Shown here in pieces: positions 42,592 through 59,868 of a DNA stretch of 64,000 bases. The first letter of the stretch is position 1. Each line of letters opens with the position of its first letter. A program made the translations under genes and the position numbers. Below the pieces are notes generated by a model that was not told the origin of the DNA, made no database searches, and saw only the letters and a list, made by a program, of their open reading frames with translations. This DNA is from Thioalkalivibrio paradoxus ARh 1 (lineage in GTDB: Bacteria > Pseudomonadota > Gammaproteobacteria > Ectothiorhodospirales > Ectothiorhodospiraceae). The DNA lies in assembly GCF_000227685.2 (NCBI RefSeq), contig NZ_CP007029.1, positions 3,198,501-3,262,500 on the forward strand, given 5' to 3'.

Positions 42592-42667
42592 GGGCCTGTA
42601 GCTCAATGGTTAGAGCAGGAGACTCATAATCTCTTGGTTGCAGGTTCGAGTCCTGCCGGGCCCACCA
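42592..42667 (+). tRNA. tRNA-Ile2 (anticodon CAU, lysidine-type)
   Basis: A 76-base tRNA with CCA encoded. The acceptor GGGCCTG pairs with CGGGCCC, the D-arm is TAGCTCAATGGTTAGAGC, the anticodon loop is CTCATAA and the T-arm GGTTCGAGTCC. Its AUGGUUAGAGCAGG ... UUGGUUGC pattern resembles E. coli ileX/ileY rather than elongator tRNA-Met, so C34 is probably modified to lysidine and the tRNA reads AUA. The last 46 bases of the gene lie within the left attachment repeat; integration leaves the gene intact. Confidence 0.9.
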
Positions 42668-42669
42668 AT
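42621..42669 (+). other. attL attachment site
   Basis: 49 bases from GACTCATAATC (anticodon arm of tRNA-Ile2) to CCACCAAT, identical to 59820-59868. Tyrosine integrases commonly use tRNA 3' ends in this way, and the integrated element restores the gene end. Confidence 0.93.
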
Positions 42670-42678
42670 CATTTCAAT

Positions 42679-42745
42679 TGCTTACGTTTCCATCCGGAAC
42701 CTCCATCCAGATACCGGAGTTCCCGTGTAAGCACCATGTAAGCAC
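42679..42745 (+). promoter_or_regulatory. Left arm-type integrase binding sites
   Basis: An inverted TGCTTACG at 42679 is followed by two direct TGTAAGCA sites at 42725-42745 (GTGTAAGCACCATGTAAGCAC) with an 11-bp period. The same arrangement occurs at 59639-59677 near the integrase gene. Short repeated sites on both sides of the core are the pattern of arm-type sites of lambda-like integrases or of the excisionase. Confidence 0.65.
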
Positions 42746-42793
42746 TTTCGGGAAGTCCGCGGCTCTGGCGGTGGCACCACCAAACCCACCCAC

Positions 42794-42819
42794 GAAAAAC
42801 CCCGGCACAGCGGCCGGGG
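42794..42819 (-). terminator. Rho-independent terminator at the left end of the element
   Basis: On the minus strand, CCCCGGC / GCCGGGG with a 6-base loop is followed by five T residues. It ends the leftward small-gene cluster 43771-42852. A degraded copy of the same hairpin lies just outside attR at about 59955-59976. Confidence 0.8.
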
Positions 42820-42851
42820 TCGGTAGGCTCGGCGGGATCAGCGGCAGCCGG

Positions 42852-43106
42852 TCAGCCCGGGTCGCGGCGCCTGCGTGAAAGCTCCTGCACTTCCAGGCTC
42901 AGGGATTCCAGCTCATCGCGCAGGTGCCAGTAGAGCGCGCAGGCGTCCGAGGTTTCGCCATCGTCGCGCCCGGGGCTATGGGCGGTCGCACGGGCCAGGG
43001 TGCCGACGATCCCGGTCAGTGCTGTGATGCGACCCATGGCCTGGTGATACGTCCGCTCGAACTCGTCCGTGCCGGTGGGCACCGCTTCCAGGCGCGGGGC
43101 GTTCAT
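42852..43106 (-). CDS. Small phage-type protein of unknown function
   Basis: An 84-residue, mostly helical protein (YHQAMGRITALTGIVGTLAR; YWHLRDELESLSLEVQELS). I do not recognise it. Its ATG overlaps the stop of the upstream gene (ATGA), so it is translationally coupled. It is the last gene of the leftward cluster before the terminator at 42794. Confidence 0.68.
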   Translation of the reverse strand: MNAPRLEAVPTGTDEFERTYHQAMGRITALTGIVGTLARATAHSPGRDDGETSDACALYWHLRDELESLSLEVQELSRRRRDPG

Positions 43107-43291
43107 GCGGCACCCCGCAGGGTCCGGATGGCCTGGTAGAGTTCGTCGGCGCGGATGCGCTGCTCGGTGGCTGCTTGAACGTCCAGGTCGTCGACCGCGG
43201 CATAGAATCGGTCGCGGACCTCGTAGACGCGAGCCCAGAGGGCGCTGATCGGGTCGATCCGCGGGATTGGGGTATGCTCGCTCGTGCTCAT
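43103..43291 (-). CDS. Small phage-type protein of unknown function
   Basis: A 62-residue protein (RIDPISALWARVYEVRDRFY), helical and acidic. The ATG at 43291 has a strong AAGGAGG upstream. It ends RGAA followed by an ATGA overlap with the next gene, the same kind of junction as at 43574-43577, hinting that the two gene pairs share an origin. Confidence 0.66.
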   Translation of the reverse strand: MSTSEHTPIPRIDPISALWARVYEVRDRFYAAVDDLDVQAATEQRIRADELYQAIRTLRGAA

Positions 43292-43307
43292 GTCGGCTTC
43301 CTCCTTC

Positions 43308-43577
43308 TCAGGTTGCCGTGTGGGAAGCCCGGTCCGAGCGGGTGCTACCGCAGGGGCCGGGCGTTTTTGCTGCGGGTGCGAACGTGGCGACCTTCCGAAC
43401 CTGGAACGCCACCGGGATCTCCAGGCGCTCCCTGCGGCCGGATTCCCAGCCATCGCGGTAGACGGTGCGTTCGGTGTCGGTCAAGCGCAACGAGCGCGGC
43501 GGGTCCATGTCGAGGTTCGACCAGCCACGGGAATAGCCGTGGCGGTAGGCTCGAGCCAGGCGTAGACGGGCGTTCAT
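43308..43577 (-). CDS. Small basic protein with a ribosome-modulation-factor-like pattern
   Basis: An 89-residue protein. RLARAYRHGYSRGWSNLD followed by ERTVYRDGWESGRRERL repeats a G-Y/W-x-x-G pattern similar to RMF-type proteins that bind ribosomes in stationary phase. The similarity is by eye and only suggestive. It is coupled by ATGA to the amber-interrupted gene upstream. Confidence 0.55.
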   Translation of the reverse strand: MNARLRLARAYRHGYSRGWSNLDMDPPRSLRLTDTERTVYRDGWESGRRERLEIPVAFQVRKVATFAPAAKTPGPCGSTRSDRASHTAT

Positions 43578-43771
43578 GCCGCACCGCCGTGAATGCCGCG
43601 CATCAGGTCGTTGCGGAGTTTCCAGGCATCGGCCGGCACGGCGCTGTTGGCCAGCTTCAGCTAGTCCTTGCGCTCGGACTCGGGTAGGCCGTTCCACCAG
43701 CGGATGCCAGGATGGGCTTCGGTGGATGCGTCCACGGAACGCGGACGGACTGCTAGACTTGCTGTGCTCAT
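43574..43771 (-). pseudogene. Small phage-type gene interrupted by an in-frame amber codon
   Basis: Reads 65 codons from ATG 43771 (GGAGG upstream) with TAG at codon 37 (43661-43663), inside HPGIRWWNGLPESERKD-stop-LKLANSAVPADAWKL. Small prophage proteins of this type have WWN ... PESER followed by a Trp and then SAVPADAW, so the TAG probably replaced a TGG. The reading frame after the TAG stays conserved and its stop overlaps the next start (ATGA). Either a recent point mutation or an amber that is sometimes read through. Confidence 0.72.
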
Positions 43772-43849
43772 GACGGTGGCCTCCTAAGGTGTCCGTCGTG
43801 GGAAGTCATCCGGTTACCGTTGGCGCGGTGCCGGATGGCGCATCTACGT

Positions 43850-44023: not shown

Positions 44024-44301
44024 GCCTGCAGCATGGCACAGGGCGCGGAAATATGCCAGCAGAAATTAAACCTGCGCCTACGCGCGGGGCTGCACCCTTT
44101 GCCCGCTCTCCGCAGACACGCCCATAGCCCAACCGAAAATCCGTCTGCCCCCCTGGCGGGCCGATTTCGGCCGCATAGGCTGCAGCCGCTACCAAGAAGG
44201 GCCTCCGTTACGACTTGACAGCCCCCGGGAGCGAAGGGATATTCCGGTGAAGGACATTGGATTTTCTATCCTTCATTTTCCTTAGCCATAAGAAGAAACC
44301 A

Positions 44302-44946
44302 ATGAAAAACAAGCGCCCTTGTTTGTTCGTCTTAATCATGGTCTTGGGAATCGGCAGCGGGCAGGCTATTGCGTTTGACCCGGATGCCGCGCTGCGTGAA
44401 GCGCGTGAACGAGAGCGACTGGAAGCTGATAGACCAGCACTTGAAATAGCAAGTCAGCGATATAGCGTGAAGGGACGAGATCGCGGGATCGCCGTAGATC
44501 GTGTGACCGGGCTTGAATGGATGCGCTGTAGCTTAGGACAAACGTGGTATCCGCAGAGTGATACCTGTCAAGGGCAAGCCTCTCGGTATAACTGGGATGA
44601 CGCTATATTGCTCCCTCAGTTGATGAACGAAGCTGGGGGTTATGGTGGATATAAGGACTGGCGAGTACCAACGATAGACGAACTACGCACCCTGGTTTTC
44701 TGTTCGAGGCGCACACCGCCTATTGATCCCGAAGGCGGTAGATGTCCTTCGGGCTCTCGAAGTCCAACTATTTTTTGGGATATGTTTCCAAATACTCCCA
44801 CGGGCAATTTCTGGTCGGCTTCGCCCTATGACAGTTATTATTCGGACAGCGTCTGGCGCGTGGGCTTCAGGCATGGCAGCGCCCATGGTTTCAGCGGCAC
44901 CCGGAGCGGCCACGGCCACGTTCGCCTTGTGCGCGGCCGACAGTGA
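44302..44946 (+). CDS. Secreted DUF1566/Lcl-type C-lectin-fold protein
   Basis: A 214-residue protein with a signal peptide (LFVLIMVLGIGSGQAIAFD). The body has the DUF1566 blocks VDRVTGLEWMRCS, GGYGGYKDWRVPTIDELRTL and NFWSASPYDSYY, ending GHVRLVRGRQ. DUF1566 domains have a C-type-lectin fold and are found in surface and phage-associated proteins. The first two thirds have visibly lower GC than the neighbours, which suggests separate acquisition (a lysogenic-conversion cargo gene). The last 40 residues show a Gly/His/Ser-rich pattern discussed in the findings. Confidence 0.8.
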   Translation: MKNKRPCLFVLIMVLGIGSGQAIAFDPDAALREARERERLEADRPALEIASQRYSVKGRDRGIAVDRVTGLEWMRCSLGQTWYPQSDTCQGQASRYNWDDAILLPQLMNEAGGYGGYKDWRVPTIDELRTLVFCSRRTPPIDPEGGRCPSGSRSPTIFWDMFPNTPTGNFWSASPYDSYYSDSVWRVGFRHGSAHGFSGTRSGHGHVRLVRGRQ

Positions 44947-45045: not shown

Positions 45046-45303
45046 CTATTCGCCACTTCGTTTTCCTCGGGCTTCAAGGTTCGGACCGAACCTTGAACCG
45101 CCTTTCGCCTCCCGGGCCAGCCTGGACAGGATGTAGTCGCGGTTCTCCCCTCGCTTGGGCTTTAAGGTTCGGACCGAACCTTTAACCTCTGGGCCGTCGC
45201 CCACTGGTGGGCGCCCAACGGATGCGAGAGGATTCGCCCTCGCCTTCTCGGCACCGGCCTTAGCCCGCTCCCGCCGGATCGGGGGTCTGGTATCACTGCA
45301 GTC
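45046..45303 (-). pseudogene. Remnant of a phage gene (related to the fragment at 48632-48880)
   Basis: An open 86-codon frame without a start codon. Its residues RENLAR-type pattern (AGAEKARANPLASVGRPP, then KRGENRDYILSRLAREAK) parallels AAENPLPANPVAEGKAG ... QTYTLRRLARD of the other fragment, so both derive from one gene family. The frame contains two copies of the palindrome AAGGTTCGGACCGAACCTT, 88 bases apart. The remaining sequence from 44947 to 45045 shows no gene. Confidence 0.5.
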
Positions 45304-45429: not shown

Positions 45430-45636
45430 ATGGGCAGCTCGATCGACGGTAACAGCGCCAGCCTGGACCGACGCTCGAAGGGAATCATGGGCCAAGTGGA
45501 CTGTGCGGACTACGGCATCGACGTGGACGCCATCGGCAAGGGGATCGAGCGGTTCCGGGCGGAGGTTCCGGAGGGCGAAGGAATCGCGCTGGAGGACAGG
45601 GTTGCGAAATTCATGGAACAGCGGAGGGATGCGTGA
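45430..45636 (+). CDS. Small acidic protein, paralogue of the 45857 product
   Basis: A 68-residue protein, LDRRSKGIMGQVDCADYGID then VDAIGKGIERFRAEV. It aligns with the 74-residue product of 45857-46081, so this is a local duplication with the immunity-like gene between the two copies. No known domain. ATG 45430 has AAGG upstream; its stop overlaps the next start. Confidence 0.7.
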   Translation: MGSSIDGNSASLDRRSKGIMGQVDCADYGIDVDAIGKGIERFRAEVPEGEGIALEDRVAKFMEQRRDA

Positions 45637-45860
45637 TGGAGGACTACCCGATTCTGAGCACGCTGGTGGTGATTTACTTCATCCCGGTGATCGTGGCTCG
45701 GCTGCGGTCGCACCACAATACGTTTGCGATCGGAATACTTAATCTGGTGGCTGGCTGGACGCTGGTCGGCTGGATCGCGGCGCTCGTTTGGGCGTTTACC
45801 CGGCCACCGGAGGCGGAGCCACGCGTCACCTGGCACGAGCGCAAAGAACCGAGGCTATGA
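45633..45860 (+). CDS. Superinfection-immunity-like membrane protein
   Basis: A 75-residue (GTG) or 74-residue (ATG 45636) protein with two membrane helices: ILSTLVVIYFIPVIVARLR and FAIGILNLVAGWTLVGWIAALV. The pattern IPVIVARLRSHHNT ... AIGILNLVAGWTLVGW is that of the Imm superinfection-exclusion family first described in T4, which blocks DNA entry of related phages. It overlaps both neighbours by ATGA-type junctions. Confidence 0.8.
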   Translation: MMEDYPILSTLVVIYFIPVIVARLRSHHNTFAIGILNLVAGWTLVGWIAALVWAFTRPPEAEPRVTWHERKEPRL

Positions 45861-46081
45861 CGAAGGCGGAGGAACAGAAAGTGGGTGGATCAATCGACAG
45901 CGTCAGCGAGAGCATGGACCGGCGCATGAAGGAGATCATGGGCCAAGTCGACCCCGAGGAATACGCGGTGGACGTGGACGCGATCGACAAGGAGATCGAC
46001 GCGGAACTCTCGAAGGTGAAGCAGCCGGGGGACACCGAGGACGCCAAGCCCGCCCAGGACCGAGAGGGAGACTTCGGGTAG
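45857..46081 (+). CDS. Small acidic protein, paralogue of the 45430 product
   Basis: A 74-residue protein, SESMDRRMKEIMGQVDPEEY then VDVDAIDKEIDAELSKVKQP, clearly related to the 45430 product. Highly charged, probably helical, with no recognised domain. ATG 45857 overlaps the immunity-gene stop. It converges with the terminase-like gene at 46088. Confidence 0.72.
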   Translation: MTKAEEQKVGGSIDSVSESMDRRMKEIMGQVDPEEYAVDVDAIDKEIDAELSKVKQPGDTEDAKPAQDREGDFG

Positions 46082-46087: not shown

Positions 46088-46666
46088 TCAGACCGGCATG
46101 CGACCGGCGGCCAGCGCTGCAAGCTGCTCGTCGGTCAGCGAACTCAGGTCCACCGGCATATCCAGCCCCCAGGCTTTGCGCTCGCCGTCCTGGACCAACT
46201 TCAAGGTCTCGACGTGGATCTTCGCGGCCTTCAGGTCCTCGAAGGCACGGCGCTTCATGACCAGCAGTATCTGCTGTCGCTCCATCGGATCCCTGATGGC
46301 CTCCGCGATCTGGTGCTCCCCGACGTTCTGGTGGTTCTCCTTCGCGGCCAGGGCCATCTGCCGCGCGGCCTCGAGTTCGTCCCGGTGCTTGTCGATCACT
46401 CCGGCACGGCGGGCAGCCTCGGCGTCGATGGCGGCAGCGGTTTTTTTGTGATCGGCCGGGTTGACGATCCCTGTGACCTTCTCCGTGACTTTCCGGTGAA
46501 GGGTCGCAGCCAGGTTTGCCCCGTTGTCCCACTGTTCCCGCTTTGCACGGCGGGATACGGCAGCCCGGTCCACGTTCATCCGGGCAGAGATTTCGCGCAG
46601 CGAGAGTCCGGCGCCCTCCCGCAGTGCCCGTGCTTCGGACCACTGTTCCGCCGTCAGCCTCGGCAT
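46088..46666 (-). CDS. Terminase-small-subunit-like HTH protein
   Basis: A 192-residue protein. The N-terminal helix-turn-helix (LREISARMNVDRAAVSRRAK) is followed by helical segments (RDELEAARQMALAAKENHQN) and a C-terminal GERKAWGLD stretch common in small terminase subunits and related phage DNA-binding proteins. Small terminases select viral DNA for packaging. No large subunit is nearby. It starts inside the end of the zinc-binding gene. Confidence 0.6.
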   Translation of the reverse strand: MPRLTAEQWSEARALREGAGLSLREISARMNVDRAAVSRRAKREQWDNGANLAATLHRKVTEKVTGIVNPADHKKTAAAIDAEAARRAGVIDKHRDELEAARQMALAAKENHQNVGEHQIAEAIRDPMERQQILLVMKRRAFEDLKAAKIHVETLKLVQDGERKAWGLDMPVDLSSLTDEQLAALAAGRMPV

Positions 46667-46953
46667 CGCACATCCTCCCCAACGTAGATCACTGCAATCT
46701 CGGCCGACTGCTCCGGGGTCGGGTTCTCGTTCTGCGTGCAGGCAAGCCCAGCATGCCGGCCATTCGGTAGCTCTGCACCACAGCAACATACGCTGTCATG
46801 CCTGCCCTCGGCCCTGGCCCCACAGTCGGCACAGCGGGCAACGATGCTGCCGTCCTCCCGCTGGCCTTCAAGGACGCGCCCAAGGCAGTACCGGCACACG
46901 TGGTCAGTAACACGCCAGCCTTTCGGGTCCGGCCGGTCATCAGCCATCGGCAT
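46654..46953 (-). CDS. Small zinc-binding phage protein
   Basis: About 99 residues with four cysteine pairs or triplets: CRYCLGRVLEG, RCADCGARAEG, VCCCGAELPNG. Two zinc fingers are likely. Function unknown; similar cysteine-rich proteins occur in phage packaging or regulation regions. A second ATG two codons in (46947) could be the start. It overlaps its neighbours on both sides. Confidence 0.68.
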   Translation of the reverse strand: MPMADDRPDPKGWRVTDHVCRYCLGRVLEGQREDGSIVARCADCGARAEGRHDSVCCCGAELPNGRHAGLACTQNENPTPEQSAEIAVIYVGEDVRCRG

Positions 46954-47143
46954 GCTGGTCCGGTCCCGACAACGCGCGATCGAGACACCACGCCAGCGCC
47001 CGCGTGTCGCCCAGCTTCGCCTGCCGGATCATGCCTTCGATGAGCCCCGGAATCTCAGGCACCAGGCGATCATGCAGCGCCAGGCGCGTTTGGCGTCCGA
47101 GGTTCCGGGGTCGGCCTGGTCGGCGTCCAGTGGGGGTGCTCAT
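46940..47143 (-). CDS. Small basic phage-type protein
   Basis: A 67-residue protein beginning MSTPTGRRPGRPRNLGRQ and ending with RALAWCLDRAL. The AT-hook-like GRRPGRPRN suggests nucleic-acid contact. ATG 47143 overlaps the upstream stop (TGATG). Not recognised otherwise. Confidence 0.65.
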   Translation of the reverse strand: MSTPTGRRPGRPRNLGRQTRLALHDRLVPEIPGLIEGMIRQAKLGDTRALAWCLDRALSGPDQHADG

Positions 47144-47889
47144 CACCGAACCCAAGCCGCCAGACGCGGGTCCATCCTGCGGATACCGCCAGCATCACGG
47201 TGCGCAGTCGCCGCGGCCATCAACGCCAGTTCGAGCCGCTGGCAAGTCAGCGCCAAGGCGTGGATTCGAGCCTCCTTGACCGCGTTGTTCCAGCCGCGCT
47301 CCCACTCGCGCAGCGCCTTGGTCACGAGTTCGTCCCGGACTGGCGCTTCGGCTTCGACTCGCGCGATCAGATCCTCCAGCGCTTCGGCATCCGTCGCCAG
47401 CAGGTGGACCCGCGCGGCATCGTCCGGGCGCTCATCGCCGGCCGCGCGCCGCTGTCCGATCGCAGTGCGCTCGCTCTGCAGGCGTTCCAGGCGATCGCGC
47501 AGTTCCCCGACCTTGTGGCGGTGCGCCCGAATCGCGGAATCCTCGGCTTGGGCCTTCTGTTGCGCCAGCAACAGGTCCACCGCGCGCTCCGCTGGCACAT
47601 CGACCTCGGGCTTCGAGATCGTAAGCACCCGATCCACGATCGCCCGAATTTCGGCGCTAGCCTCTGCAGCCATGGCCTCAGCATCGGCTCGGACGGCATC
47701 CTGCGCGGCCGCTGCCGATTCCCGTGCCTCAACGGCTACCTGGTCCTCGAGCCGGTCCATCTCTTCGATGGCCAAATCCAGGGTCGCCCGGATCGAACTC
47801 GTGCCCTCGCCCGCTGCCACGGCGGCGTCCAGCTCGGATTTCGCTCGGGCCACGCGCTCGCGGGCTTTCTCCAGCATGTTCTGCGTCAT
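47143..47889 (-). CDS. Long coiled-coil protein of unknown function
   Basis: A 248-residue protein that is almost entirely coiled coil: LEKARERVARAKSELDAAV, LAIEEMDRLEDQVAVEARES and ELRDRLERLQSERTAIGQ. ATG 47889 has GAGG eight bases upstream; a GTG three codons earlier is possible. It leads the leftward cluster 47889-46088, and could be a scaffold, a structural protein or a packaging accessory; nothing specific supports one choice. Confidence 0.7.
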   Translation of the reverse strand: MTQNMLEKARERVARAKSELDAAVAAGEGTSSIRATLDLAIEEMDRLEDQVAVEARESAAAAQDAVRADAEAMAAEASAEIRAIVDRVLTISKPEVDVPAERAVDLLLAQQKAQAEDSAIRAHRHKVGELRDRLERLQSERTAIGQRRAAGDERPDDAARVHLLATDAEALEDLIARVEAEAPVRDELVTKALREWERGWNNAVKEARIHALALTCQRLELALMAAATAHRDAGGIRRMDPRLAAWVR

Positions 47890-47976
47890 CTCGGTCACCT
47901 CGGTTGCCGGGTTTCGGTGGATTCCGGCCCGGTAGTGGGCAGGTTCGCATCACGACATATCAGCGCGTGACCAAAA

Positions 47977-47992
47977 GTGAACTATGATTCAC
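47977..47992 (+). promoter_or_regulatory. Toxin-antitoxin promoter with overlapping operator
   Basis: The inverted repeat GTGAA-CTATGA-TTCAC encloses a -10-like TATGAT (47983-47988), 12 bases before the toxin start. An antitoxin dimer bound here would block RNA polymerase, as in other HigBA-type modules. Confidence 0.5.
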
Positions 47993-48003
47993 AATACGGT
48001 CCA

Positions 48004-48300
48004 ATGGTCACGATCCAGACAACCAGTTCGTTCGATGCGTGGTTCGAGTCCCTGCGGGACCGGCAGGGCAAGGCGCGGATCGCAGCCCGGCTGCGGCGCG
48101 TAGAGATGGGGCACATGGGCGACGTGAAGGCGATCGGCAAGGGCGTGCAGGAGATGCGGATCGACTGCGGACCCGGATACCGGATCTACTTCACCCAGCG
48201 GGGCATCGAGATCGTGATCTTATTGGCTGGTGGCGACAAGGACTCCCAGCGACGGGACATCCGCGCGGCCACCGAACTGGCCCGGCAGATTGGAGACTGA
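48004..48300 (+). CDS. RelE/HigB-type toxin (addiction module killer protein)
   Basis: A 98-residue protein of the RelE-superfamily Gp49/HigB group: FDAWFESLRDRQGKARIAAR, GHMGDVKAIGKGVQEMRIDCG and GYRIYFTQRGIEIVILLAGG. Such toxins cleave mRNA on the ribosome. It is the first gene of the pair, toxin-before-antitoxin as in higBA. It is oriented opposite to the surrounding phage genes and sits in a decayed gene, so it looks like a secondary insertion. Confidence 0.9.
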   Translation: MVTIQTTSSFDAWFESLRDRQGKARIAARLRRVEMGHMGDVKAIGKGVQEMRIDCGPGYRIYFTQRGIEIVILLAGGDKDSQRRDIRAATELARQIGD

Positions 48301-48304
48301 CGAC

Positions 48305-48631
48305 ATGACCACCGTGACGCTGAAGCGCTGGGACGTGGTGGACCACCTCCGCACTGACGAGGACATGGCCCTCTATCTCGACGCCTGCTTCGCTGAGGAT
48401 CCAGGGGACGGGAGCCTGATCCGGGTCGCTCTCGGAGACATTGCCCGAGCACACGGCATGACCCAACTGGCCCGGGATACCGGCATGGCTCGCGAGGGTC
48501 TGTACAAGGCGCTGTCCGCTGAAGGGAATCCGGAGTTCGCGACGATCATGAAGGTCGTGCGAGCCCTCCGGCTTCGGCTGCATGCCCACAGCGCGAACGA
48601 GAACCGCGAGCCGGGCATCCTGGCGCAGTAG
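48305..48631 (+). CDS. HigA-type antitoxin (addiction module antidote protein)
   Basis: A 108-residue protein. VALGDIARAHGMTQLARDTG followed by EGLYKALSAEGNPEFATIMK is the Xre-type helix-turn-helix of this antitoxin group. The protein should neutralise the toxin and repress the shared promoter. It starts 4 bases after the toxin stop. Confidence 0.9.
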   Translation: MTTVTLKRWDVVDHLRTDEDMALYLDACFAEDPGDGSLIRVALGDIARAHGMTQLARDTGMAREGLYKALSAEGNPEFATIMKVVRALRLRLHAHSANENREPGILAQ

Positions 48632-48880
48632 TCCTCCAGCCTGGATGGCGGCGGCGTTGGCGGTCAGTTCGCCGGCTTCCACCTTGTCCAGCAGTTCGGG
48701 GTTATCGCGGGCCAGGCGGCGGAGGGTGTAGGTCTGGTCATTGCCGCGAGATAAACGGGTTACATTGTCACCCGTTTTATTCCCCCTTCCCGGTCCTGCC
48801 TTGCCTTCCGCTACCGGGTTTGCAGGTAACGGATTCTCCGCAGCCTCCCGCACCTTCGCCGCGATGTCGGCCGCCCACAA
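48632..48880 (-). pseudogene. Truncated phage gene fragment cut by the toxin-antitoxin module
   Basis: The minus strand reads AADIAAKVREAAENPLPANP, then QTYTLRRLARDNPELLDKV and EAGELTANAAAIQAG before running antisense into the antitoxin gene. The conserved family would continue only a few residues further, and the 5' side is cut by the terminator at 48882, so both ends are missing. Related to the fragment at 45046-45303. Confidence 0.6.
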
Positions 48881-51415: not shown

Positions 51416-51541
51416 GCCCGGCTCCTGGGGGCCGTGTTCCGATGGCTGCAAACGTACCACGCTGCGCGCTGTGAAGCGCTCCAGAACGGCGTGACGCTAC
51501 ACTGCCCGTGCCCCGCCGGTTCCTCGGTCTCCGACGCGGGT

Positions 51542-52334: not shown

Positions 52335-52400
52335 CATGGTCTCGGTCCTCGGTTGGTCGCCCCGTCGGGCGCGTGTACGGCGTACAGGCTCATAGTCGCA

Positions 52401-52769: not shown

Positions 52770-52789
52770 GTTCGTGTCTCCTGTTAGGT

Positions 52790-53231: not shown

Positions 53232-53350
53232 CGCTCCTTCGGTTTCGGTTTGCGGCGCGGTTGCAGGCGGAATAAGGCCAGCGGTCGAAACGGGGACGAT
53301 CCCGGTCGCGCCCATGCTGACAGGTCGGGTCGGTCGCGACCTGGGTTCAT
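53228..53350 (-). CDS. Coupled 40-residue peptide
   Basis: MNPGRDRPDLSAWARPG then a polybasic end RRKPKPKER. It is flanked by ATGA overlaps on both sides (ssb stop upstream, 53231 start downstream), which is the main argument that it is real. No known family. Confidence 0.45.
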   Translation of the reverse strand: MNPGRDRPDLSAWARPGSSPFRPLALFRLQPRRKPKPKER

Positions 53351-53688
53351 GCGGTCGCCCTCCGCTTGCCCGACGGTCGCGCCGATCTCGCGGTCAGCAC
53401 CGCGTCCGGGATCAGCGTCCACGATTCGCGCAGGGCACCATCCCGGCCGGTGTAGTGGCCCCGGGTCATGCGGCCTTGCGCCGTGACCATCTCGCCCTTG
53501 GCGGCCCGGTCCAGGGCCTCGGCGGCAGCCCCGAAGGCCAGCAGCGATACCCACAGGGTTTCCGGTTCCTCAGCATTGTGTGGCGTCACGTCTACAGCCA
53601 CCGACGCGCGAACCATCAGCTTGCCGGTCTTGGTCTCGCCCGCCACGGGGTCGGCGCCGAGGCGGCCATGCACGGATGCGTAGATCAT
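53347..53688 (-). CDS. ssb: Single-stranded-DNA-binding protein
   Basis: A 113-residue OB-fold protein: MIYASVHGRLGADPVAGETK, LMVRASVAVDV, ETLWVSLLAFGAAAEALDRA, KGEMVTAQGRM. It has the SSB core but lacks the long Gly/Gln tail and acidic tip of chromosomal SSB, as is common for phage-encoded versions. It is coupled to the upstream gene (ATGA). Confidence 0.82.
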   Translation of the reverse strand: MIYASVHGRLGADPVAGETKTGKLMVRASVAVDVTPHNAEEPETLWVSLLAFGAAAEALDRAAKGEMVTAQGRMTRGHYTGRDGALRESWTLIPDAVLTARSARPSGKRRATA

Positions 53689-54407
53689 CGCGTCACCTCC
53701 CGCAGCCATGAGTTCGCAGCGAAGCGGCCGGCGTTGGATTTCCGGTGTTCCACCGGCTCAGCGTCGGCGGCCTCGCGCCAGCGGCGGGCGTATTCGGCCA
53801 GCAGGCTTTCCCGGGCGCGTCGAAACCGAGTGCGGGCATCGACGAACTTCCAGTCCTCGCGCAGCAGCGGCAAGCCGTCCAGCGGGCCGGCATCGCGCTC
53901 TGTGCGGGCAGCCGGTGCAGGAGCCGGCGCGGGCTGGGCCTTCCGTTCCCGGGCCAGGCGCTCGGACACGGCCTTGGCGAAGGCGCGCAGGAACTCCGGT
54001 CGGCAGTGGGGCGTGTAGCCCTCCAGCCAGTCGCTGCGGCCTTCCTCGCCGAATGCCTCCAGCAGTTCGGACAGCGTGACAGGCAACCCCTCGGCGGCTC
54101 GGGCCAGAGCGATGCGCAACTCCGTCACCGACCGTGCAACCGGGGGTGCAACTCGGTCTGTTTCCGATGCAACTTTTTGCCCGTTTTCAGGGGGTCCGAG
54201 TTGCATTACTTTCCCTGTGGGAGTTGCATGCTGGTTGCATGCTTGGTTGCGCCCCAAAACCGCAGCAGCAAGCCGTTTCAGGCTGGTCGGTTGCGCAGGG
54301 GTTGCATGCTTGGTTGCGTGCTCCGAGGGTGAAAGTTGCAGGTTGCATCTACTGGGGGCTGCAACCGTGCAACTCCCATGCTCCGAGCGCTGTTGATCCG
54401 GCCTCAT
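53685..54407 (-). CDS. Replication-operon protein of unknown function carrying the iteron-like cluster
   Basis: A 240-residue protein. The first 75 residues are low-complexity (SEHATKHATPAQPTSLKRL; NQACNQHATPTGKVMQLGP) and are encoded by DNA dense in GTTGCA/TGCAAC repeats, so the DNA rather than the protein may be under selection there. The rest is helical (LSELLEAFGEEGRSDWLEGY; ARESLLAEYARRWREAADAE) and not recognised. Coupled by ATGA to both the RepA-like gene and ssb. Confidence 0.62.
   Translation of the reverse strand: MRPDQQRSEHGSCTVAAPSRCNLQLSPSEHATKHATPAQPTSLKRLAAAVLGRNQACNQHATPTGKVMQLGPPENGQKVASETDRVAPPVARSVTELRIALARAAEGLPVTLSELLEAFGEEGRSDWLEGYTPHCRPEFLRAFAKAVSERLARERKAQPAPAPAPAARTERDAGPLDGLPLLREDWKFVDARTRFRRARESLLAEYARRWREAADAEPVEHRKSNAGRFAANSWLREVTR
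54135..54373. repeat. Iteron-like cluster of GTTGCA/TGCAAC hexamers, candidate replication origin
   Basis: Eleven exact GTTGCA or TGCAAC hexamers and three GTTGCG variants fall within 239 bases. A 19-base direct repeat GGTTGCATGCTTGGTTGCG occurs at 54233-54251 and 54300-54318. The cluster lies beside the RepA-like ATPase and primase-like genes, where iteron origins of phage satellites and plasmids are often placed. It overlaps coding sequence. Confidence 0.6.
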
Positions 54408-55360
54408 TTCGCACCTCCCGAGAGGTAGCCGCCGGCCTTCGCACGCTTGGCGTGGCGACTGACGGTGGACTTGTTCACTTCCAGTTCCGTGGCGATTTCG
54501 GACTGGCTCATGCCCTCGTTCAGAAGATCAACCACGCGATCGAACGTGGATTCCTCGACTGTGCGGGTCGCCCAGGTCATCAGGCCGTCGGGGCCGGTCG
54601 TCAGCGTCGCCTCGATCGGCTGCACGTCCTCGCCGTAGATCCCGCGCGACTTCTCGAAATGGCACTCGAACACGGCTCCCTGCTCGGGGCTGTAATCGTT
54701 CGGACGCGACAGCGCGATCACCGTGTCCAACACGTCTTCCCGGCGGCTGGTGCCACGCTGGGCTCCGCCTTTGCCCGAATGGTGGACGAACAGCACAGAC
54801 CGCCCCGAAGCCCGCTGGCGCAGCGCCCATGCCTGCACCGGGGTCCAGGCGTCGGCATCGTTCTCCTTGGCGCTTGTCAGGGTCGAAATGTTGTCGACGA
54901 CGATCAGCCGGTGCTCGGGCAGCAGAGCACTCTCGATGGCGTCCTGTCCGTCGGTAGTGTCGATCCGCGGCATCCCCTCTGGCTGGAGGTCCGGGGTCAA
55001 GATCGTAAATGGCGCGATGGCCTCGCTCTCGGCACTGGCGACGATCGCGGCCAGGCGCTCCTGCATCGCGACCGCCGGCATTTCCCCGTCGATGTAGAGG
55101 ACACCCGCAGGTTCCGGCGCGGTCCAGCCGAGATAGGTGCCGCCGGCCGCGATCGCGTAGCCGACACCGAGCGCGAAGTGCGTCTTGCCGATCCCTCGGC
55201 GGGCGTAGACCATGCAGAGCCCTTGAGCCGGCAGCCACGGCGCCAGGAGATTCTTGCGGGGCGGGAAATCCCGACCCAGAAACTCCGCCAGCCCGATAGG
55301 CCGGATCGGCCAGGCATCCGCTTCAACATGCGTCGGCTTCACAAACTGGGCCGGGTTCAT
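54404..55360 (-). CDS. RepA-like AAA ATPase (replicative helicase/loader type) with C-terminal HTH
   Basis: A 318-residue RecA-fold ATPase of the RepA/AAA_25 type. Walker A is ARRGIGKTH, Walker B is HRLIVVDNISTLTS, and LFVHHSGKGGAQRGTSR is the conserved sensor block. The C-terminus has a helix-turn-helix (SQSEIATELEVNKSTVSRHA). It probably unwinds or loads at the element's origin. ATG coupling to the primase upstream. Confidence 0.82.
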   Translation of the reverse strand: MNPAQFVKPTHVEADAWPIRPIGLAEFLGRDFPPRKNLLAPWLPAQGLCMVYARRGIGKTHFALGVGYAIAAGGTYLGWTAPEPAGVLYIDGEMPAVAMQERLAAIVASAESEAIAPFTILTPDLQPEGMPRIDTTDGQDAIESALLPEHRLIVVDNISTLTSAKENDADAWTPVQAWALRQRASGRSVLFVHHSGKGGAQRGTSRREDVLDTVIALSRPNDYSPEQGAVFECHFEKSRGIYGEDVQPIEATLTTGPDGLMTWATRTVEESTFDRVVDLLNEGMSQSEIATELEVNKSTVSRHAKRAKAGGYLSGGAK

Positions 55361-56364
55361 GCCGCCCCCCTTGTGGCCAGCACGGCGGCCAGATCGTTAA
55401 AGTCGCTGCCTGCGGCCCCAGGCGGGAATTCGGGGAACGCCACTTCAGCCCCGGCGGCGCGGGCGGCCCGGTTCGCGGCCTCGGTGCCGGCCGGGTCAGC
55501 GTCCCCACATATCACCATCGGCAGGTTCGGCCAGCAGCGGCGGGCGCCTACAGCCACGGTCGGCAGGTTCCCCGCGTCGATTGCGGCCAGTACCAAGGCC
55601 TCGGGCTTGTGTTCGGCCAGGGTGGCCCCGGTCGCCCAGCCTTCGCACAGCAGCAGTCGTTCGGGTTCCTGGGGCTCGGAAACCGGAATGAACCGGCCCG
55701 CTTTGCGCCCACCCTTCAGCAGTCGCTTGAAACCGCTCGCCTCGATAAACTGCAAGCTCCACAAGGCGCGCTCGAAGTCCGCCACGGGCAGGCACAGCAG
55801 CCCCCGGTGTTCGCGGGCGCCATGGGGCTCCACGCCCTTCCGGCGCAGGTATCCATGCCCCGGGTCCGCAGGCTTCGCGGCGTTCCAGATTCGCAGGGCG
55901 CGTTCAGCGGCGGCCAGGTGTTCCCGGCGCTCGGCCGCAGCCCGGGCAGCCCTGGCGCGTTCCCGCTCGGCCGCTCGCTCGGCCAGGTCGACGCGGGTGA
56001 ACGGTTCCGATCCCCCCGGCAGCAGCCCGGCACGCTCGAGCCATGCAAGGCAGTCGCGTGTGGTCACGGCTCCCGTCTCGCGGCGGATCAGGTCCAGCAC
56101 GCCGCCACCGGTACCGGCCTCGTGGTCGTACCAGGTGCCGGCGGCCAGATCCACGGACACGGAACCGTGGCGTCCGTAGCGGAGTTCGCGCGAACTCGAC
56201 AGCCTCGGGTTCGGTTCGCCGAGCAGCAGCCGGGCTACCGGCTCGGCCAGGTCGGGTAGCTCCCAGCTATGCGCGCAGGTATGATGTCCGCGTCGGTGCT
56301 CGCCGATGCTCTCGCCCGGCCCCCGGTGTCCCCACACCGGGCGGGCCTTATTTTCCGCCCTCAT
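55357..56364 (-). CDS. TOPRIM-domain primase-like replication protein
   Basis: A 335-residue protein: an N-terminal nucleic-acid-binding part (GRHGSVSVDLAAGTWYDHEA), a helical middle, and a TOPRIM core with LLLCEGWATGATLAEH and MVICGDADPAGTEAANRAA. This is the layout of phage and satellite primases that work with RepA/DnaB-type helicases. No clear CHC2 zinc finger is seen at the start. ATG 56364 overlaps the upstream stop (ATGA). Confidence 0.8.
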   Translation of the reverse strand: MRAENKARPVWGHRGPGESIGEHRRGHHTCAHSWELPDLAEPVARLLLGEPNPRLSSSRELRYGRHGSVSVDLAAGTWYDHEAGTGGGVLDLIRRETGAVTTRDCLAWLERAGLLPGGSEPFTRVDLAERAAERERARAARAAAERREHLAAAERALRIWNAAKPADPGHGYLRRKGVEPHGAREHRGLLCLPVADFERALWSLQFIEASGFKRLLKGGRKAGRFIPVSEPQEPERLLLCEGWATGATLAEHKPEALVLAAIDAGNLPTVAVGARRCWPNLPMVICGDADPAGTEAANRAARAAGAEVAFPEFPPGAAGSDFNDLAAVLATRGAA

Positions 56365-57158
56365 AGCAGGCCCCGTGCGCGGCAATACCGCATCACCGCC
56401 TCGACGACGCGCTGGCTATGCGCCAGCCCGAGATTGTTGGCGCAGGTCGGCCCCAGTTGCAGCACGCGCGATACCGGATCGTCCAGCTTGCGGCCGCACG
56501 CCTGACACTTGTTCAGCGGTTTGAGTGCGGCATAGAGGGGCGCAGGCCAGTCGGGTGCGTCTCCGTCGATATCGAGCAGTACGCGCAGCACGCGCTGGCC
56601 GATCTCCGGCGACGGGTCACGCTGGAGCGCGATCAGGGTGTGCCCCATCTCACACACGCACGTGCATTCGACGAAGCCGAGATAGGACTGGCCGTCGGCG
56701 TAGACGGTGAGCGACACGGTATCTAGCGACTCGTGCCAGGTGGTGCGCCCGTCGCGGTCGACCTCCTGCACTACTTTGGTTTCGATGCTGACCTTGATTG
56801 CATCTTTCGGTGATCCACCAGGGAGGTCCAGGGTCAGCGCAACCTTTCGCGCGCCCATCGGCTCGCTGGCATCATCGCTAGATCCCGGAATTTCCCAGCA
56901 AAGCAGGCGGCTCACCCATTGCTCGATCGGTGAAATCCACTCCACCGGGCCAGGGGTGACGGTGTAGCCACGGGCGCGCAGATCGTCGGCTTGTTCCTGC
57001 TGGGCCTCGGTTGCCGACGCCAGAAACTCCCGATCCATCTCGGCAGATTCCTCGTCCGTCAGGTCCGGCAGCGGCTCGAAATCTTGCGGCTTGAGCGAGG
57101 CAAGGTTGCGTTCGTCCCAGGCGGTGACAGCCTTGCTCTTAAGCGTGGCCGTCCTCAT
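56361..57158 (-). CDS. Phage protein with a C-terminal DUF6011-like zinc motif
   Basis: A 265-residue protein. The C-terminus has CQACGRKLDDPVSRVLQLGP then TCANNLG, the cysteine pattern of small zinc-binding domains found in phage and plasmid replication regions. The N-terminal 60 residues are acidic and helical; the middle is strand-rich (TVSLTVYADGQSYLGFVECT) with extra cysteines. Role unknown; the position suggests early replication or regulation. ATG 57158 overlaps the HTH gene stop. Confidence 0.68.
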   Translation of the reverse strand: MRTATLKSKAVTAWDERNLASLKPQDFEPLPDLTDEESAEMDREFLASATEAQQEQADDLRARGYTVTPGPVEWISPIEQWVSRLLCWEIPGSSDDASEPMGARKVALTLDLPGGSPKDAIKVSIETKVVQEVDRDGRTTWHESLDTVSLTVYADGQSYLGFVECTCVCEMGHTLIALQRDPSPEIGQRVLRVLLDIDGDAPDWPAPLYAALKPLNKCQACGRKLDDPVSRVLQLGPTCANNLGLAHSQRVVEAVMRYCRARGLL

Positions 57159-57418
57159 CAGGCCACCTCCGCTGTTGCTTCGTGGCGGCGGCTCTTGGGC
57201 CCCGGCGGAGTGCGGGCTTTCGTTTTGCGGCCAGCTTCCAGCAGCCGTTCCAGGCTGTCGGCGGGCCAAGCCAGGCGGCCGTTGGGTAGGCGGTCAGGCC
57301 GAAGTCCGTAATAGGAACCCGAGCGGCAAAGTTGCACTCGGATTCCTTCCGGGGTTACCTGCATAAAGTCGGCGATTTCGCGGGTCGACAGTCCGCGCGT
57401 GGTGTTGCGGTCGGCCAT
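57158..57418 (-). CDS. Small HTH regulator (AlpA/excisionase-like)
   Basis: An 86-residue protein. LSTREIADFMQVTPEGIRVQ then RPDRLPNGRLAWPADSLERL is the MerR-type winged-helix pattern of AlpA and excisionase proteins. In satellites and prophages these control integrase and the early operon. ATG 57418 has AGGAGG upstream. It is the first gene of the 57.4-51.7 kb operon. Confidence 0.75.
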   Translation of the reverse strand: MADRNTTRGLSTREIADFMQVTPEGIRVQLCRSGSYYGLRPDRLPNGRLAWPADSLERLLEAGRKTKARTPPGPKSRRHEATAEVA

Positions 57419-57510
57419 TAGGTGGCACCTCCTATCGTTAGGTTGGTGGTGCCACACTACTGATCACGAGCCCCGAAAAGGGGGGAGATTTCTAACTAGT
57501 TTCGGACGAA

Positions 57511-58239
57511 TCACCCCCCTTTCTTGCAGGCGTCTTTCACATCACGCGGTGTCATCGGCGGAATCGGATCATCGATCGCGTTCACAACTTGCGAAATGAG
57601 CGCCCAATGGGGAGCCGCGAACATGCGTCCGAACTCCGATCCGAGGAACCCTGCCCGCGCGGTGGCGTGTGCGCGTGGGGCGTTGGGCTTTCGAGGTTGG
57701 ATCTTCGTCGGCCTGGGGGACTCCAGCGCGCACAACGCTGCCAGCGTTTTCAGGTCCGCAGCGAGTCGCCCATGTAATTTCGACACGTCTTCACGGTTCA
57801 TCGTTGTCTGAACTTCCGCTGCCATCTGGAGCATGTCCAGCGGAAGATCGCTCAGGAGTCGCCGAAGAACTTTCGCCTTGCCTGAAACATCTGCTGCCAG
57901 GTTCGAGTATTGCGCCCAGCTACGCCGGTCGACGAAATCGGCGGCATCGAAGCATGCGGACCTGAGCACGTCGACCGCGAGCCGGTCCCGGTCTTGTTGC
58001 GTGCGCTGGGCGGCCATCTCAAGCTGTGGCAGCAGCTTCGCAGTTCGGAGCTTGCGCCAGATCTTCGGAAAACTGGGGCTACTGAGAAGCTGGAACACCC
58101 GCACACGATCGCGCGTGGCGAAAAGCATTCGCTCTAGCGATTCAAACGGCATGCCTTGAAACTCGCGTTGTTGCGAGAACGCCGACCAAATCGGTGCGGG
58201 GCAGCCTCGCCACTCCGGCGGTCGCCCGGCGGGCATCAC
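57511..58239 (-). CDS. Integrase-linked protein of unknown function
   Basis: A 242-residue, mostly helical, basic protein (MLFATRDRVRVFQLLSSPSF; KVLRRLLSDLPLDMLQMAA). It is coupled to the integrase by an ATGA overlap, so the two are made together. No recognised domain. The end (AIDDPIPPMTPRDVKDACKK) is conserved-looking. It may assist integration or be a cargo gene. About 90 bases separate it from the HTH gene. Confidence 0.7.
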   Translation of the reverse strand: MMPAGRPPEWRGCPAPIWSAFSQQREFQGMPFESLERMLFATRDRVRVFQLLSSPSFPKIWRKLRTAKLLPQLEMAAQRTQQDRDRLAVDVLRSACFDAADFVDRRSWAQYSNLAADVSGKAKVLRRLLSDLPLDMLQMAAEVQTTMNREDVSKLHGRLAADLKTLAALCALESPRPTKIQPRKPNAPRAHATARAGFLGSEFGRMFAAPHWALISQVVNAIDDPIPPMTPRDVKDACKKGG

Positions 58240-59570
58240 ATCACCAGCCGCAGCGTTGGGGCCCCTGCCTCCGGTTTCTCAACGCCTCCCGCTTCGAGAA
58301 TCCAGTCCTCGATCTTCACATGCCACATCCGCAAGAGGTCCAGCGGCCGGCGGCGGTAATGCTTCTCCGCAATGGCGCTCGGCTTGTGGCCCTGAATCTG
58401 GGCCACGACACCCACCGGGCACCCAACCCATTCGGACAGCGTGCCGAAGCTACGGCGCAGCCCGTGCAGGGTCAGGTGCGGCAGCCCAGCGGCAGCCACG
58501 GCGCGGGAATGGGCATGGTTCGGCTCGCCCATGCGGCCGTGTTGGGTGGTCGGGCTCGAAAATACCCAGGGGTTTGGCTTCCCGTTCGCCAGCTCGCGGC
58601 GTGGCAGGGCTTGCAGCAGTTCGGCCAGGTAAGGTGTCAGTGGAATGGTTCGCTCGCCCTCGGCCTTGTCCCGCAGGGTCAGGGCGCTCCATGAAAAGTC
58701 CACGTCCTTCCAGCGCAAGGCGGCCAGTTCTCCGGGCCTCGCCCCGGTCAGCAGCAGCCCTTGCAGGTAGGCGGCTCGCACCGGATCACCGATCGCGCGC
58801 ACCGCGGCAAACCATGCTGGAAGCTGCTCGCGCTGCAGGCAATCGTCCTTGGGTTTCTTGCGCGGCACCTTGCGGCGAACGTCCTTGGTCAGCAAGGCGG
58901 CCGGGTCCACCAGTCCGCAGTACTCGGGATGCTCGTTGGCCCAGTTCAGGAAAGTGCGCAGCAGACGAAAAGCGAGCGCTGTGGTGGTCGGGCGGCGCGT
59001 AGACGACTGCCGCACCAGGAGTTCCGACAGGTCTTCTGCCGTCAGATCCTGCAGGAGCTTCCTTCGGAGAGGGTACAAGACCCCGGCCACAGTCTTCTTC
59101 TTGCCGCGGCGGCGAGCCTTCCCCGGGGCATTCATGGCCTGCGCGTGGCTTTGCAGGTGGCCTTCGCTCCAGTTCGATGATTGGTCCGCGACGTAGGCAT
59201 CCCATGCCTCACCAACCGTAACCTTCGCGCGAACCTTCTCCGCGCGTGCCTGCTCTGCGGCCTTGGCCTGCTCGGCCCGGGCGTCCGCTGGGTGAATGCC
59301 GGCTCGAATCATGTCCCCCAAGCGGCGAGCCTCGGCACGAACATCGTCGATACTCGCGAACGCGGTCACGGCGTCGATCGTGATGCGCAAGGACCGGCTG
59401 TGCAGCCGGGACTGGAAGACGAAGGACTTGGCGCCGCTTGGCGTGACTCGAACCCCCAGACCAGGGGCATCGGTGTCCCAGAGGAATGTCTGTCGCGCCC
59501 CTTCCCTGCATGCCAGGCTGTCGATGCGCCCTCGGGTCAGGCGGACGCGGGTAGAATTCGCCGTAGCCAT
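58236..59570 (-). CDS. int: Tyrosine recombinase (integrase)
   Basis: A 444-residue integrase with an N-terminal DUF4102-type arm-binding domain (APGLGVRVTPSGAKSFVFQ), a SAM-like core-binding domain, and the catalytic domain with the first Arg in TGARPGELAALRWKD, HxxR as HGLRRSFG, and the nucleophile Tyr in EKHYRRRPLDLL. ATG 59570 has GGAGG upstream. It lies beside attR and is expected to act on the tRNA-Ile2 end. Confidence 0.94.
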   Translation of the reverse strand: MATANSTRVRLTRGRIDSLACREGARQTFLWDTDAPGLGVRVTPSGAKSFVFQSRLHSRSLRITIDAVTAFASIDDVRAEARRLGDMIRAGIHPADARAEQAKAAEQARAEKVRAKVTVGEAWDAYVADQSSNWSEGHLQSHAQAMNAPGKARRRGKKKTVAGVLYPLRRKLLQDLTAEDLSELLVRQSSTRRPTTTALAFRLLRTFLNWANEHPEYCGLVDPAALLTKDVRRKVPRKKPKDDCLQREQLPAWFAAVRAIGDPVRAAYLQGLLLTGARPGELAALRWKDVDFSWSALTLRDKAEGERTIPLTPYLAELLQALPRRELANGKPNPWVFSSPTTQHGRMGEPNHAHSRAVAAAGLPHLTLHGLRRSFGTLSEWVGCPVGVVAQIQGHKPSAIAEKHYRRRPLDLLRMWHVKIEDWILEAGGVEKPEAGAPTLRLVM

Positions 59571-59638
59571 TGGGAACCTCCGCTTAGGTTTCCGGTGGTC
59601 AGGGTCTCGCGGGTGTTGGCGCACCTGCGGGGTCCGTC

Positions 59639-59677
59639 TGCTTACACGAACCCTCCGTGTAAGCACTATGTAAGCAG
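59639..59677 (+). promoter_or_regulatory. Right arm-type integrase binding sites
   Basis: TGCTTACACG at 59639-59648 and GTGTAAGCACTATGTAAGCAG at 59657-59677 mirror the left-end arrangement at 42679-42745, including the 11-bp spacing of the two direct sites. They sit in the integrase leader, so integrase or excisionase binding could also regulate int. Confidence 0.65.
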
Positions 59678-59819
59678 TTTCGCGAAATTCAGGTTCATTG
59701 TGGCGCGTTATCATCGCGGGAGCAAGCCGAGCGAGAATCACGCAAGTCCATGACAGAACTAGCAAAATATCAACGAGGCATAACGCTTGCTAACGGTGCT
59801 GGATTTCAGCCGATTGGGC

Positions 59820-59868
59820 GACTCATAATCTCTTGGTTGCAGGTTCGAGTCCTGCCGGGCCCACCAAT
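59820..59868 (+). other. attR attachment site
   Basis: The 49-base copy of the tRNA-Ile2 3' half, identical to attL. The upstream tRNA half is missing, so this is a partial tRNA repeat and not a functional gene. Confidence 0.93.

What the first reader, a model, noticed from the sequence alone, without database searches (positions are those of the whole stretch)
42621..59868. 17.2 kb tRNA-Ile2-integrated element that looks like a phage satellite rather than a complete prophage
Seen: identical 49-bp ends, integrase, AlpA-like regulator, primase/RepA-type replication block, SSB, small-terminase-like gene and superinfection-immunity-like gene, but no capsid, portal, large terminase, tail tube, baseplate or lysis genes. 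Known: phage-inducible islands and related satellites carry int, alpA/stl-type regulator, pri-rep, ori and often terS, and rely on a helper for capsids. Inference: this may be a satellite of an unrecognised helper phage in this lineage.
Basis: partly seen in the sequence, partly recalled or inferred. Interest (0 to 1): 0.72.

Follow-up and report, generated by a model that had tools for sequence, protein, structure and literature searches.

The report
Phage satellite with own tail ruler
A 17 kb piece of mobile DNA parked in a bacterial tRNA gene looks like a parasite of a large virus of bacteria: no capsid gene was found in it, but it carries its own version of the virus's tail-length ruler and two small proteins resembling part of the virus's capsid-building scaffold, so it may build hybrid virus particles to spread.

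Summary
The element (window 42618-59868) is real and best read as a phage satellite. Two sister elements, one in the same genome and one in a congener, sit by other tRNA genes with different integrases and primases. They share TMP, terS-like and neighbouring genes and are similar in size (17.2, 17.6, 17.0 kb). TMP dN/dS is 0.23-0.28, although the third copy has a frame break. Of 44 annotated phage structural genes only TMPs match the three elements; the same genes reveal coat, sheath and tube genes in four other genomes (portal and terminase were found in neither set, so they lack a positive control). Two small genes upstream of the TMP weakly but repeatedly match the C-terminus of those phages' putative scaffold, recalling SaPI1 CpmB. 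Satellite-like elements elsewhere carry TMP plus tail chaperone, or TMP plus protease plus putative hub; a tree rejects one satellite TMP clade (AU p 0.00014). Likely mechanism, inferred: helper-induced replication, small capsids, chimeric tails, as published for PLEs in 2026. Helper and transfer are not demonstrated.

The parts
42592..42667 (+). tRNA gene with CAT anticodon (attachment gene)
42618..42669 (+). attL, 52-base direct repeat (49 identical)
59817..59868 (+). attR
58236..59765 (-). tyrosine integrase
   Evidence: (phrog_1, 1e-44)
57511..58239 (-). 242 aa, unknown; no PHROG, Pfam or PADLOC hit
57158..57457 (-). small protein called AlpA-like by eye (label not backed by a family hit)
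56361..57269 (-). 302 aa with DUF6011 motif
55357..56385 (-). Toprim primase
54404..55360 (-). RepA-like AAA_25 ATPase with C-terminal HTH
53685..54407 (-). 240 aa, unknown; C-terminal 149 aa 87% identical in el3
53347..53709 (-). SSB; 94% identical in el3
53067..53315 (-). 82 aa ORF, unknown
   Evidence: no hit
52790..53005 (-). protein O, counterpart in el2 and el3
   Evidence: no Pfam hit
52401..52793 (-). protein N, conserved in the three elements
51975..52337 (-). protein M, 120 aa, similar to the C-terminus of the helper-type putative scaffold
   Evidence: 52% over 25 aa, E 0.004
51754..51975 (-). protein Lq, 73 aa, scaffold C-terminus-like; similar to M
48929..51415 (-). tape measure protein with C-terminal SLT transglycosylase domain (ORF open to 51460; start at 51415 chosen by alignment)
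48635..48880 (-). start of HTH protein I; el2 holds a 257 aa copy; in el1 a toxin-antitoxin pair lies where the rest would be
47977..48300 (+). Gp49-like (HigB type) toxin
48230..48631 (+). HI1420-type antidote
47143..47898 (-). protein H, 251 aa, probably coiled coil (by eye), conserved
46940..47155 (-). protein G (weak DUF5681, E 0.009, below cut-off)
46654..46953 (-). protein F, cysteine-rich by eye
   Evidence: no hit
46088..46666 (-). protein E, terS-like: PHROG 1206; predicted HTH plus long helices
   Evidence: fold search without a significant match
45788..46081 (+). ORF of a small protein with counterparts in el2 and el3; paralogous DNA at 45431-45548
45633..45860 (+). Imm_superinfect protein
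45430..45636 (+). small paralogue of the 45788-46081 product
   Evidence: no Pfam hit
45066..45187 (+). two copies of a 34-base repeat holding a near-palindrome
44257..44946 (+). Lcl_C domain protein, probable cargo
42785..43806 (-). left-end block of small ORFs, DNA 92% identical in el2

Best explanation
It is a phage satellite. Shown: a tRNA-integrated element with integrase, its own replication genes and a terS-like gene; no coat, sheath, tube or baseplate gene detected, nor portal or large terminase (the last two without a positive control); and a tape measure protein homologous to those of 81-96 kb myophages. Inferred: when such a phage infects, the element excises, replicates with its primase, RepA-like protein and SSB, directs helper packaging to its DNA with the terS-like protein, makes the helper capsid small with two mini-scaffold proteins (M and Lq) that compete for coat protein, and replaces the helper's tape measure protein with its own, so that its DNA leaves in particles made of helper capsid and tail parts built round a satellite ruler.
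For: TMP: 29.7% over el1 residues 19-468 (E 4e-51) and 31% over the SLT part to the TMP of IMG/VR contig L011; in annotated myophages the homologue lies after sheath and tube genes and before further tail genes. Family: el2 in the same genome and el3 in G010 share the left module; repeat offsets 17,199, 17,604 and 16,964 bases. Selection: TMP dN/dS 0.23-0.28; H, G, E, M, Lq and N pairs 0.16-0.47. Specificity: of 44 annotated CDS of six phages (coat, putative scaffold, protease, sheath, tube, TMP; portal from five, terminase from two, hub from one) only TMPs match el1, el2 and el3, while coat, putative scaffold, protease, sheath, tube, TMP and hub all match in four other genomes (the larger 231-ORF set gave the same). 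Scaffold: an HMM of 8 scaffold C-termini puts Lq and M of all three elements within the top 8 of 1746 ORFs; Lq beats 2000 of 2000 shuffles in each element, M 1980-1998 of 2000; reverse M model ranks the L011 scaffold first of 1480 phage ORFs (E 0.0038), reverse Lq model the Touem01 scaffold first at E 0.17. Convergence: a gammaproteobacterial MAG contig carries chaperone plus TMP, a Neoroseomonas element protease plus TMP plus putative hub; one satellite TMP clade is rejected (AU p 0.00014). Precedent: PLEs build chimeric tails with their own TMP, TAC and BhuB (PMC12987554, passages).
Against: No helper is known: the L011 coat protein was not found in 58 relatives (no positive control there), and 12 CRISPR spacers of the host show no convincing match in the part of the output seen (cut). 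Portal and terminase searches have no positive control: they matched neither the elements nor the four phage stretches. Scaffold: HHalign of M or Lq with the whole scaffold profile gave nothing above 40%; no scaffold matched the elements by tblastn at 1e-3; a chance ORF ranks among the hits, and with 12 scaffolds M of el1 falls to rank 12 and M of el2 out of the first 12. The el3 TMP is split by a frame break. No chaperone homologue was seen in el1 to el3. The terS-like model has no significant fold match. The tree has long branches and rows of odd composition, SAT_neo among them. Found in 2 of 30 genus genomes only.
Confidence: 0.72

Rival explanations
1. Decayed prophage: a myophage that lost nearly all structural genes and kept the tape measure gene by chance.
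For: A real tail gene is present without its neighbours; the el3 copy of the TMP has a frame break.
Against: Three elements at different tRNA genes with different integrases and primases keep the same module; dN/dS well below 1; sizes within a few per cent; no remnant of coat, sheath or tube.
Confidence: 0.1
2. Anti-phage island: the TMP and scaffold-like proteins act as dominant-negative decoys that spoil assembly of an infecting phage, and transmission is secondary or lost.
For: A superinfection-immunity-like gene and a toxin-antitoxin pair are carried; PLE11 combines tail interference with transfer.
Against: Integrase, replication genes and terS-like gene are kept, and the site is empty in a close relative. 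No PADLOC hit in the 10 proteins scanned.
Confidence: 0.12
3. Integrative mobilisable or plasmid-like element in which the SLT protein is a cell-wall enzyme for DNA transfer.
For: SLT domains also occur on plasmids (1158 records match; the 10 rows listed cover the SLT region only).
Against: About 480 N-terminal residues are homologous to phage TMPs; no relaxase or secretion family among the 20 proteins scanned.
Confidence: 0.04
4. Satellite whose TMP serves DNA ejection through its wall-cutting domain while a helper TMP still sets tail length.
For: The SLT domain is kept in el1 and el2, and one homologue is annotated as internal virion protein with endolysin domain; the Neoroseomonas TMP ends in a phage tail lysozyme domain instead.
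Against: The conserved part is the N-terminal and central body, and the gammaproteobacterial relative has no Pfam wall-cutting domain yet keeps the body.
Confidence: 0.15

Closest known systems
PLE of Vibrio cholerae (satellite of phage ICP1)
   Same: Satellite of a myophage with its own TMP; PLE11 also has TAC and BhuB and builds chimeric tails (PMC12987554, passages read).
   Different: Other hosts; no chaperone or hub found in el1; capsid control in PLE is by another protein (PMC10945586, abstract start only). No PLE sequence was compared here.
SaPI1 (CpmB)
   Same: CpmB is a 72-residue helical protein that shares the scaffold C-terminus and competes for coat protein (PMC5644958, passages); Lq has 73 residues and is scaffold-C-terminus-like.
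   Different: The similarity of Lq and M to scaffold is weak and untested in the laboratory; I recall no TMP in SaPI1.
PICI, cf-PICI and PICMI
   Same: Integrase, primase, AlpA (el3 only), terS-like; some cf-PICIs have putative tmp genes (legend of Extended Data Fig. 10); PICMI primases are DUF3987 or DUF5906, as in el3 and el2.
   Different: No capsid operon as in cf-PICI; larger than PICMI115 (6.1 kb, at fis); AlpA not supported in el1.
Myophages PHB04, Touem01, Mecenats66, Dolphis, ST4, fHe-Yen8-01, phiT5282EW and IMG/VR contig L011 (81-96 kb)
   Same: Homologous TMP; their putative scaffold C-terminus resembles Lq and M.
   Different: They hold the structural genes the element lacks; presumed helper kind, not relatives of the whole element.

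Membership tests
phage satellite (general) | integrated element with integrase and own replication genes | tested here: met
phage satellite (general) | lacks coat, sheath, tube and baseplate genes | tested here: met
   same queries positive in four genomes
phage satellite (general) | lacks portal and large terminase | tested here: inconclusive
   no match, but no positive control for these two genes
phage satellite (general) | depends on a helper for transfer | not testable with these tools
   needs infection experiment
PICI | integrase, AlpA or Stl regulator, primase or replication gene, terS (criteria recalled) | tested here: inconclusive
   integrase, primase and terS-like met; AlpA not supported in el1, met in el3
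cf-PICI | own capsid-forming operon | tested here: not met
PICMI | int, alpA and prim at fis | tested here: not met
   tRNA site, 17 kb (criteria)
PLE | own TMP (likeness of function) | tested here: met
PLE | homology to PLE gene set | not tested
   no PLE sequence was compared
P4-like satellite | psu, delta, sid, epsilon and alpha genes (recalled) | not tested
   only a general PHROG and Pfam scan; no such annotation appeared

The most novel reading that the evidence does not exclude
Satellites of one clade of large, presumably lytic myophages have captured the tape measure gene more than once, and some pair it with scaffold-derived mini-proteins. A compact pirate module of scaffold-like gene plus TMP, with chaperone, protease or hub in some, would then be a general way to seize both capsid size and tail assembly, here in bacteria far from Vibrio.
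Probability: 0.5. Interest if true: 0.78.

Novelty: new variant of a known kind. Interest (0 to 1): 0.66.

Why it matters
Chimeric tails of satellites were reported in 2026 for PLEs, whose authors noted putative tmp genes in other satellites. Here is a separate lineage without detected capsid genes, with its own TMP and candidate mini-scaffolds, a named kind of helper (81-96 kb myophages), and evidence of repeated capture. It turns the question why satellites replace the tape measure into one that can be tested across several satellite-helper pairs.

Tried and rejected
Fold of the terS-like protein: AlphaFold2 on 3 sequences gave mean pLDDT 77, pTM 0.48; Foldseek against PDB gave 0 matches at E 0.001 or better, so terS rests on PHROG 1206. 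Viral scans with E and H found no relatives. A profile TMP scan of the viral collection returned only L011, a named genome scan two loci, and 398 phylum genomes only the window's own. TMP on plasmids: 1158 records match, the 10 listed in the SLT region only. CRISPR spacers beside el2 (12): longest exact stretch seen 16 bases, output cut. HHalign of M and Lq with the whole scaffold: nothing above 40%. A first shuffle test failed for a wrong option and was repeated. A 36-base near-identity between the element TMP genes and L011 is explained by the conserved peptide GEAGEFFMYRAL with GC-rich codons. The 231-ORF query set was picked by longest ORF and lost some real genes to longer overlapping frames (for example coat genes of PHB04 and Dolphis); I repeated the test with 44 annotated CDS. 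One dN/dS pair, a small plus-strand protein, was misaligned and dropped. The ends of the Neoroseomonas element were not found. The host name Thioalkalivibrio (paradoxus for the window, nitratireducens for G010) is recalled from genome size and gene content, from no call. Paper searches; none of the titles and abstract starts listed describes this element, but the library is partial. One submit attempt lacked fields.
Full report
1. The observation. The element lies between a 52-base direct repeat at 42618-42669 and 59817-59868, the left copy being the end of a tRNA gene with anticodon CAT. The repeat offset is 17,199 bases. In congener G010 the same locus is unoccupied: DNA is 91% identical up to the tRNA end and the right flank resumes 118 bases later at 85%; five other congener loci compared were uninformative on the right side. 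Of 20 proteins scanned against PHROGs and Pfam, integrase, Toprim primase, AAA_25 RepA-like ATPase, SSB, terS-like and Imm_superinfect proteins are supported; the AlpA label is not for this copy.

2. What was missed. The ORF 48929-51460(-), start probably 51415, has a C-terminal SLT transglycosylase domain (PF01464, 70 bits), and its N-terminal part matches proteins of 86-95 kb phages at 23-25% (first seven rows). In Aeromonas phage ST4 the homologue follows tail sheath, major tail protein and two small genes and precedes tail and baseplate genes, the place of a tape measure gene; fHe-Yen8-01, PHB04, Touem01, Mecenats66, Dolphis and phiT5282EW have a similar order, though many genes there are annotated hypothetical and I infer their role from position. 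An 81 kb IMG/VR contig (L011) has the closest phage homologue found, about 30% over two stretches.

3. Sister elements. The same genome carries el2 at about 318-336 kb next to tRNA-Phe (three repeat blocks at one offset of 17,604 bases), and G010 carries el3 next to tRNA-Ser (a 12-base repeat, offset 16,964, the weakest of the three ends). The main DNA pieces shared by el1 and el2 are 72-92% identical. At protein level the integrases are at most 31% identical in part (el1 against el2: no match at 1e-3), primase and RepA-like proteins of el1 have no match in el2 or el3, but el1 and el3 share SSB (94%) and most of the 240 aa protein (87%). el2 has DUF5906 and el3 DUF3987 proteins. dN/dS by a Nei-Gojobori script: TMP 0.23-0.28, H 0.21-0.23, M 0.25-0.47, Lq 0.20-0.39, N 0.16-0.43, G 0.26-0.38, E 0.28-0.45, SSB 0.11, toxin 0.13. 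The el3 TMP is split by a frame break, a result against a working copy there; its comparisons use the first piece.

4. Nothing else structural was detected. Of 231 ORFs from eight helper-type phage stretches, only TMPs have tblastn matches at E 1e-3 in el1, el2 and el3; in the Neoroseomonas element protease, TMP and putative hub match; in the gammaproteobacterial MAG contig chaperone and TMP match. That ORF set had lost some real genes to longer overlapping frames, so I repeated the test with 44 annotated CDS from six of the phages: again only TMPs match el1, el2 and el3. As a positive control both sets find coat, putative scaffold, protease, sheath, tube, TMP and putative hub in four of the five other genomes from the family of Neoroseomonas alba with a TMP profile match; portal and terminase queries matched nothing in either place, so their absence from the element is less well tested. 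The fifth genome, on a 19 kb contig, matches by TMP only and is unresolved. The profile matched 6 of 397 genomes of that family, Neoroseomonas included, 2 of 47 of the window's order, and 1 of 398 of its phylum.

5. Scaffold-like proteins. I take the gene between protease and coat protein in these phages as the scaffold, by position. Protein M (51975-52337) shares 25 residues at 52% with the C-terminus of the L011 scaffold (E 0.004 in a small set). An HMM of eight scaffold C-termini against 1746 ORFs ranks the Neoroseomonas 178 aa protein first (8e-5), then Lq of el3, el2, el1 (0.008-0.10), M of el3 (0.76), one chance ORF (2.7), M of el1 and el2 (4.2, 5.9). Shuffles reaching the real score: Lq 0 of 2000 in each element, M 2-9 of 2000, the Neoroseomonas protein 0; other proteins N, H, O and two Neoroseomonas ones 120-949 of 2000; G and the MAG's 150 aa protein were not scored at all. 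With twelve scaffolds: Neoroseomonas protein 1e-6, Lq 0.009-0.07, M of el3 0.09, but a chance ORF ranks fourth, M of el1 twelfth and M of el2 is outside the first twelve; shuffles reaching M 2-20 of 2000, H 182, N 1111, the MAG protein 250. The reverse search with M ranks the L011 scaffold first of 1480 phage ORFs (0.0038), with Lq the Touem01 scaffold first (0.17). Whole-profile HHalign and tblastn did not see it. I hold this at about 0.6. CpmB of SaPI1, a 72-residue competitor sharing the scaffold C-terminus, is the precedent (PMC5644958, passages).

6. Relatives elsewhere. L045, an 11.3 kb contig of gammaproteobacterial MAG SZUA-140, has integrase, PriCT_2 primase, AAA_25 protein, an HTH_17 protein, a chaperone (PHROG 25000, 5e-7; HHalign 99.8% to the phage chaperones) and a TMP without a Pfam domain; the contig is cut, so missing genes cannot be excluded. 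L046 in Neoroseomonas alba has integrase, PriCT_1 primase, HTH_17 proteins, anti-repressors, a protease 59% identical to that of L011 (PHROG head maturation protease), the scaffold-like protein, a TMP (PHROG tape measure 1e-17) ending in a phage tail lysozyme domain, and a putative hub (36%), with no match to coat, sheath or tube in 58 kb. A tree of 17 TMPs puts the Neoroseomonas TMP with two phage TMPs of its host family (100/99) and rejects a single satellite clade (AU p 0.00014), under that model, with long branches and three rows of odd composition, the Neoroseomonas TMP among them. So TMP capture by satellites probably happened more than once.

7. Mechanism. Shown: anatomy, homology, purifying selection, empty site. 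Inferred: helper-induced excision; replication by the element's own genes; terS-directed packaging; small capsids through M and Lq; a chimeric tail with the element TMP. PLEs do the last step (PMC12987554, passages). The near-constant size of about 17.2 kb fits a packaging limit but does not prove one.

8. Judgement. The kind (tail-pirating satellite) is in print for PLEs, and putative tmp genes in cf-PICIs are mentioned there; this lineage, the scaffold-like pair and the repeated capture were not met in my partial paper searches.

Noticed in passing
L037 8341-9279 and 9432-15144: A CRISPR array of 13 repeats and genes that look like a cas operon (by eye, no family search) lie directly beside element el2.
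   Followed up: partly
window 47977-48631: A Gp49-like toxin and HI1420-type antidote pair lies within the place of gene I of el1; nearly the same toxin (98% aa) sits in el3, and el2 has no DNA match there.
   Followed up: partly
L037 6035-6214 (el2): A CsrA-like regulator (PF02599, 80 bits) is carried by el2.
   Followed up: no
window 45066-45187: Two copies of a 34-base repeat with a near-palindrome, 88 bases apart, in a stretch shared with el2; a regulator or packaging site is possible.
   Followed up: no
L096+L097 (G735:C629): A 19 kb contig with a TMP match, a match to the el1 primase and an ATPase-like ORF, but host-like genes between them; another satellite or a chimeric contig.
   Followed up: partly
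L090/L091 (G607): A phage region whose TMP lies in a 2423-codon open frame, far longer than its relatives.
   Followed up: no
L046 9989-12559: The Neoroseomonas TMP ends in a phage tail lysozyme domain where el1 has SLT and the MAG TMP has no Pfam domain: the wall-cutting end seems exchangeable.
   Followed up: no
L057 (reverse) joined to L011, 5351-17200: Very large ORFs (2315 and 1463 codons) upstream of the protease; at the same place PHB04 has genes annotated as N-6 DNA methylase and helicase.
   Followed up: no
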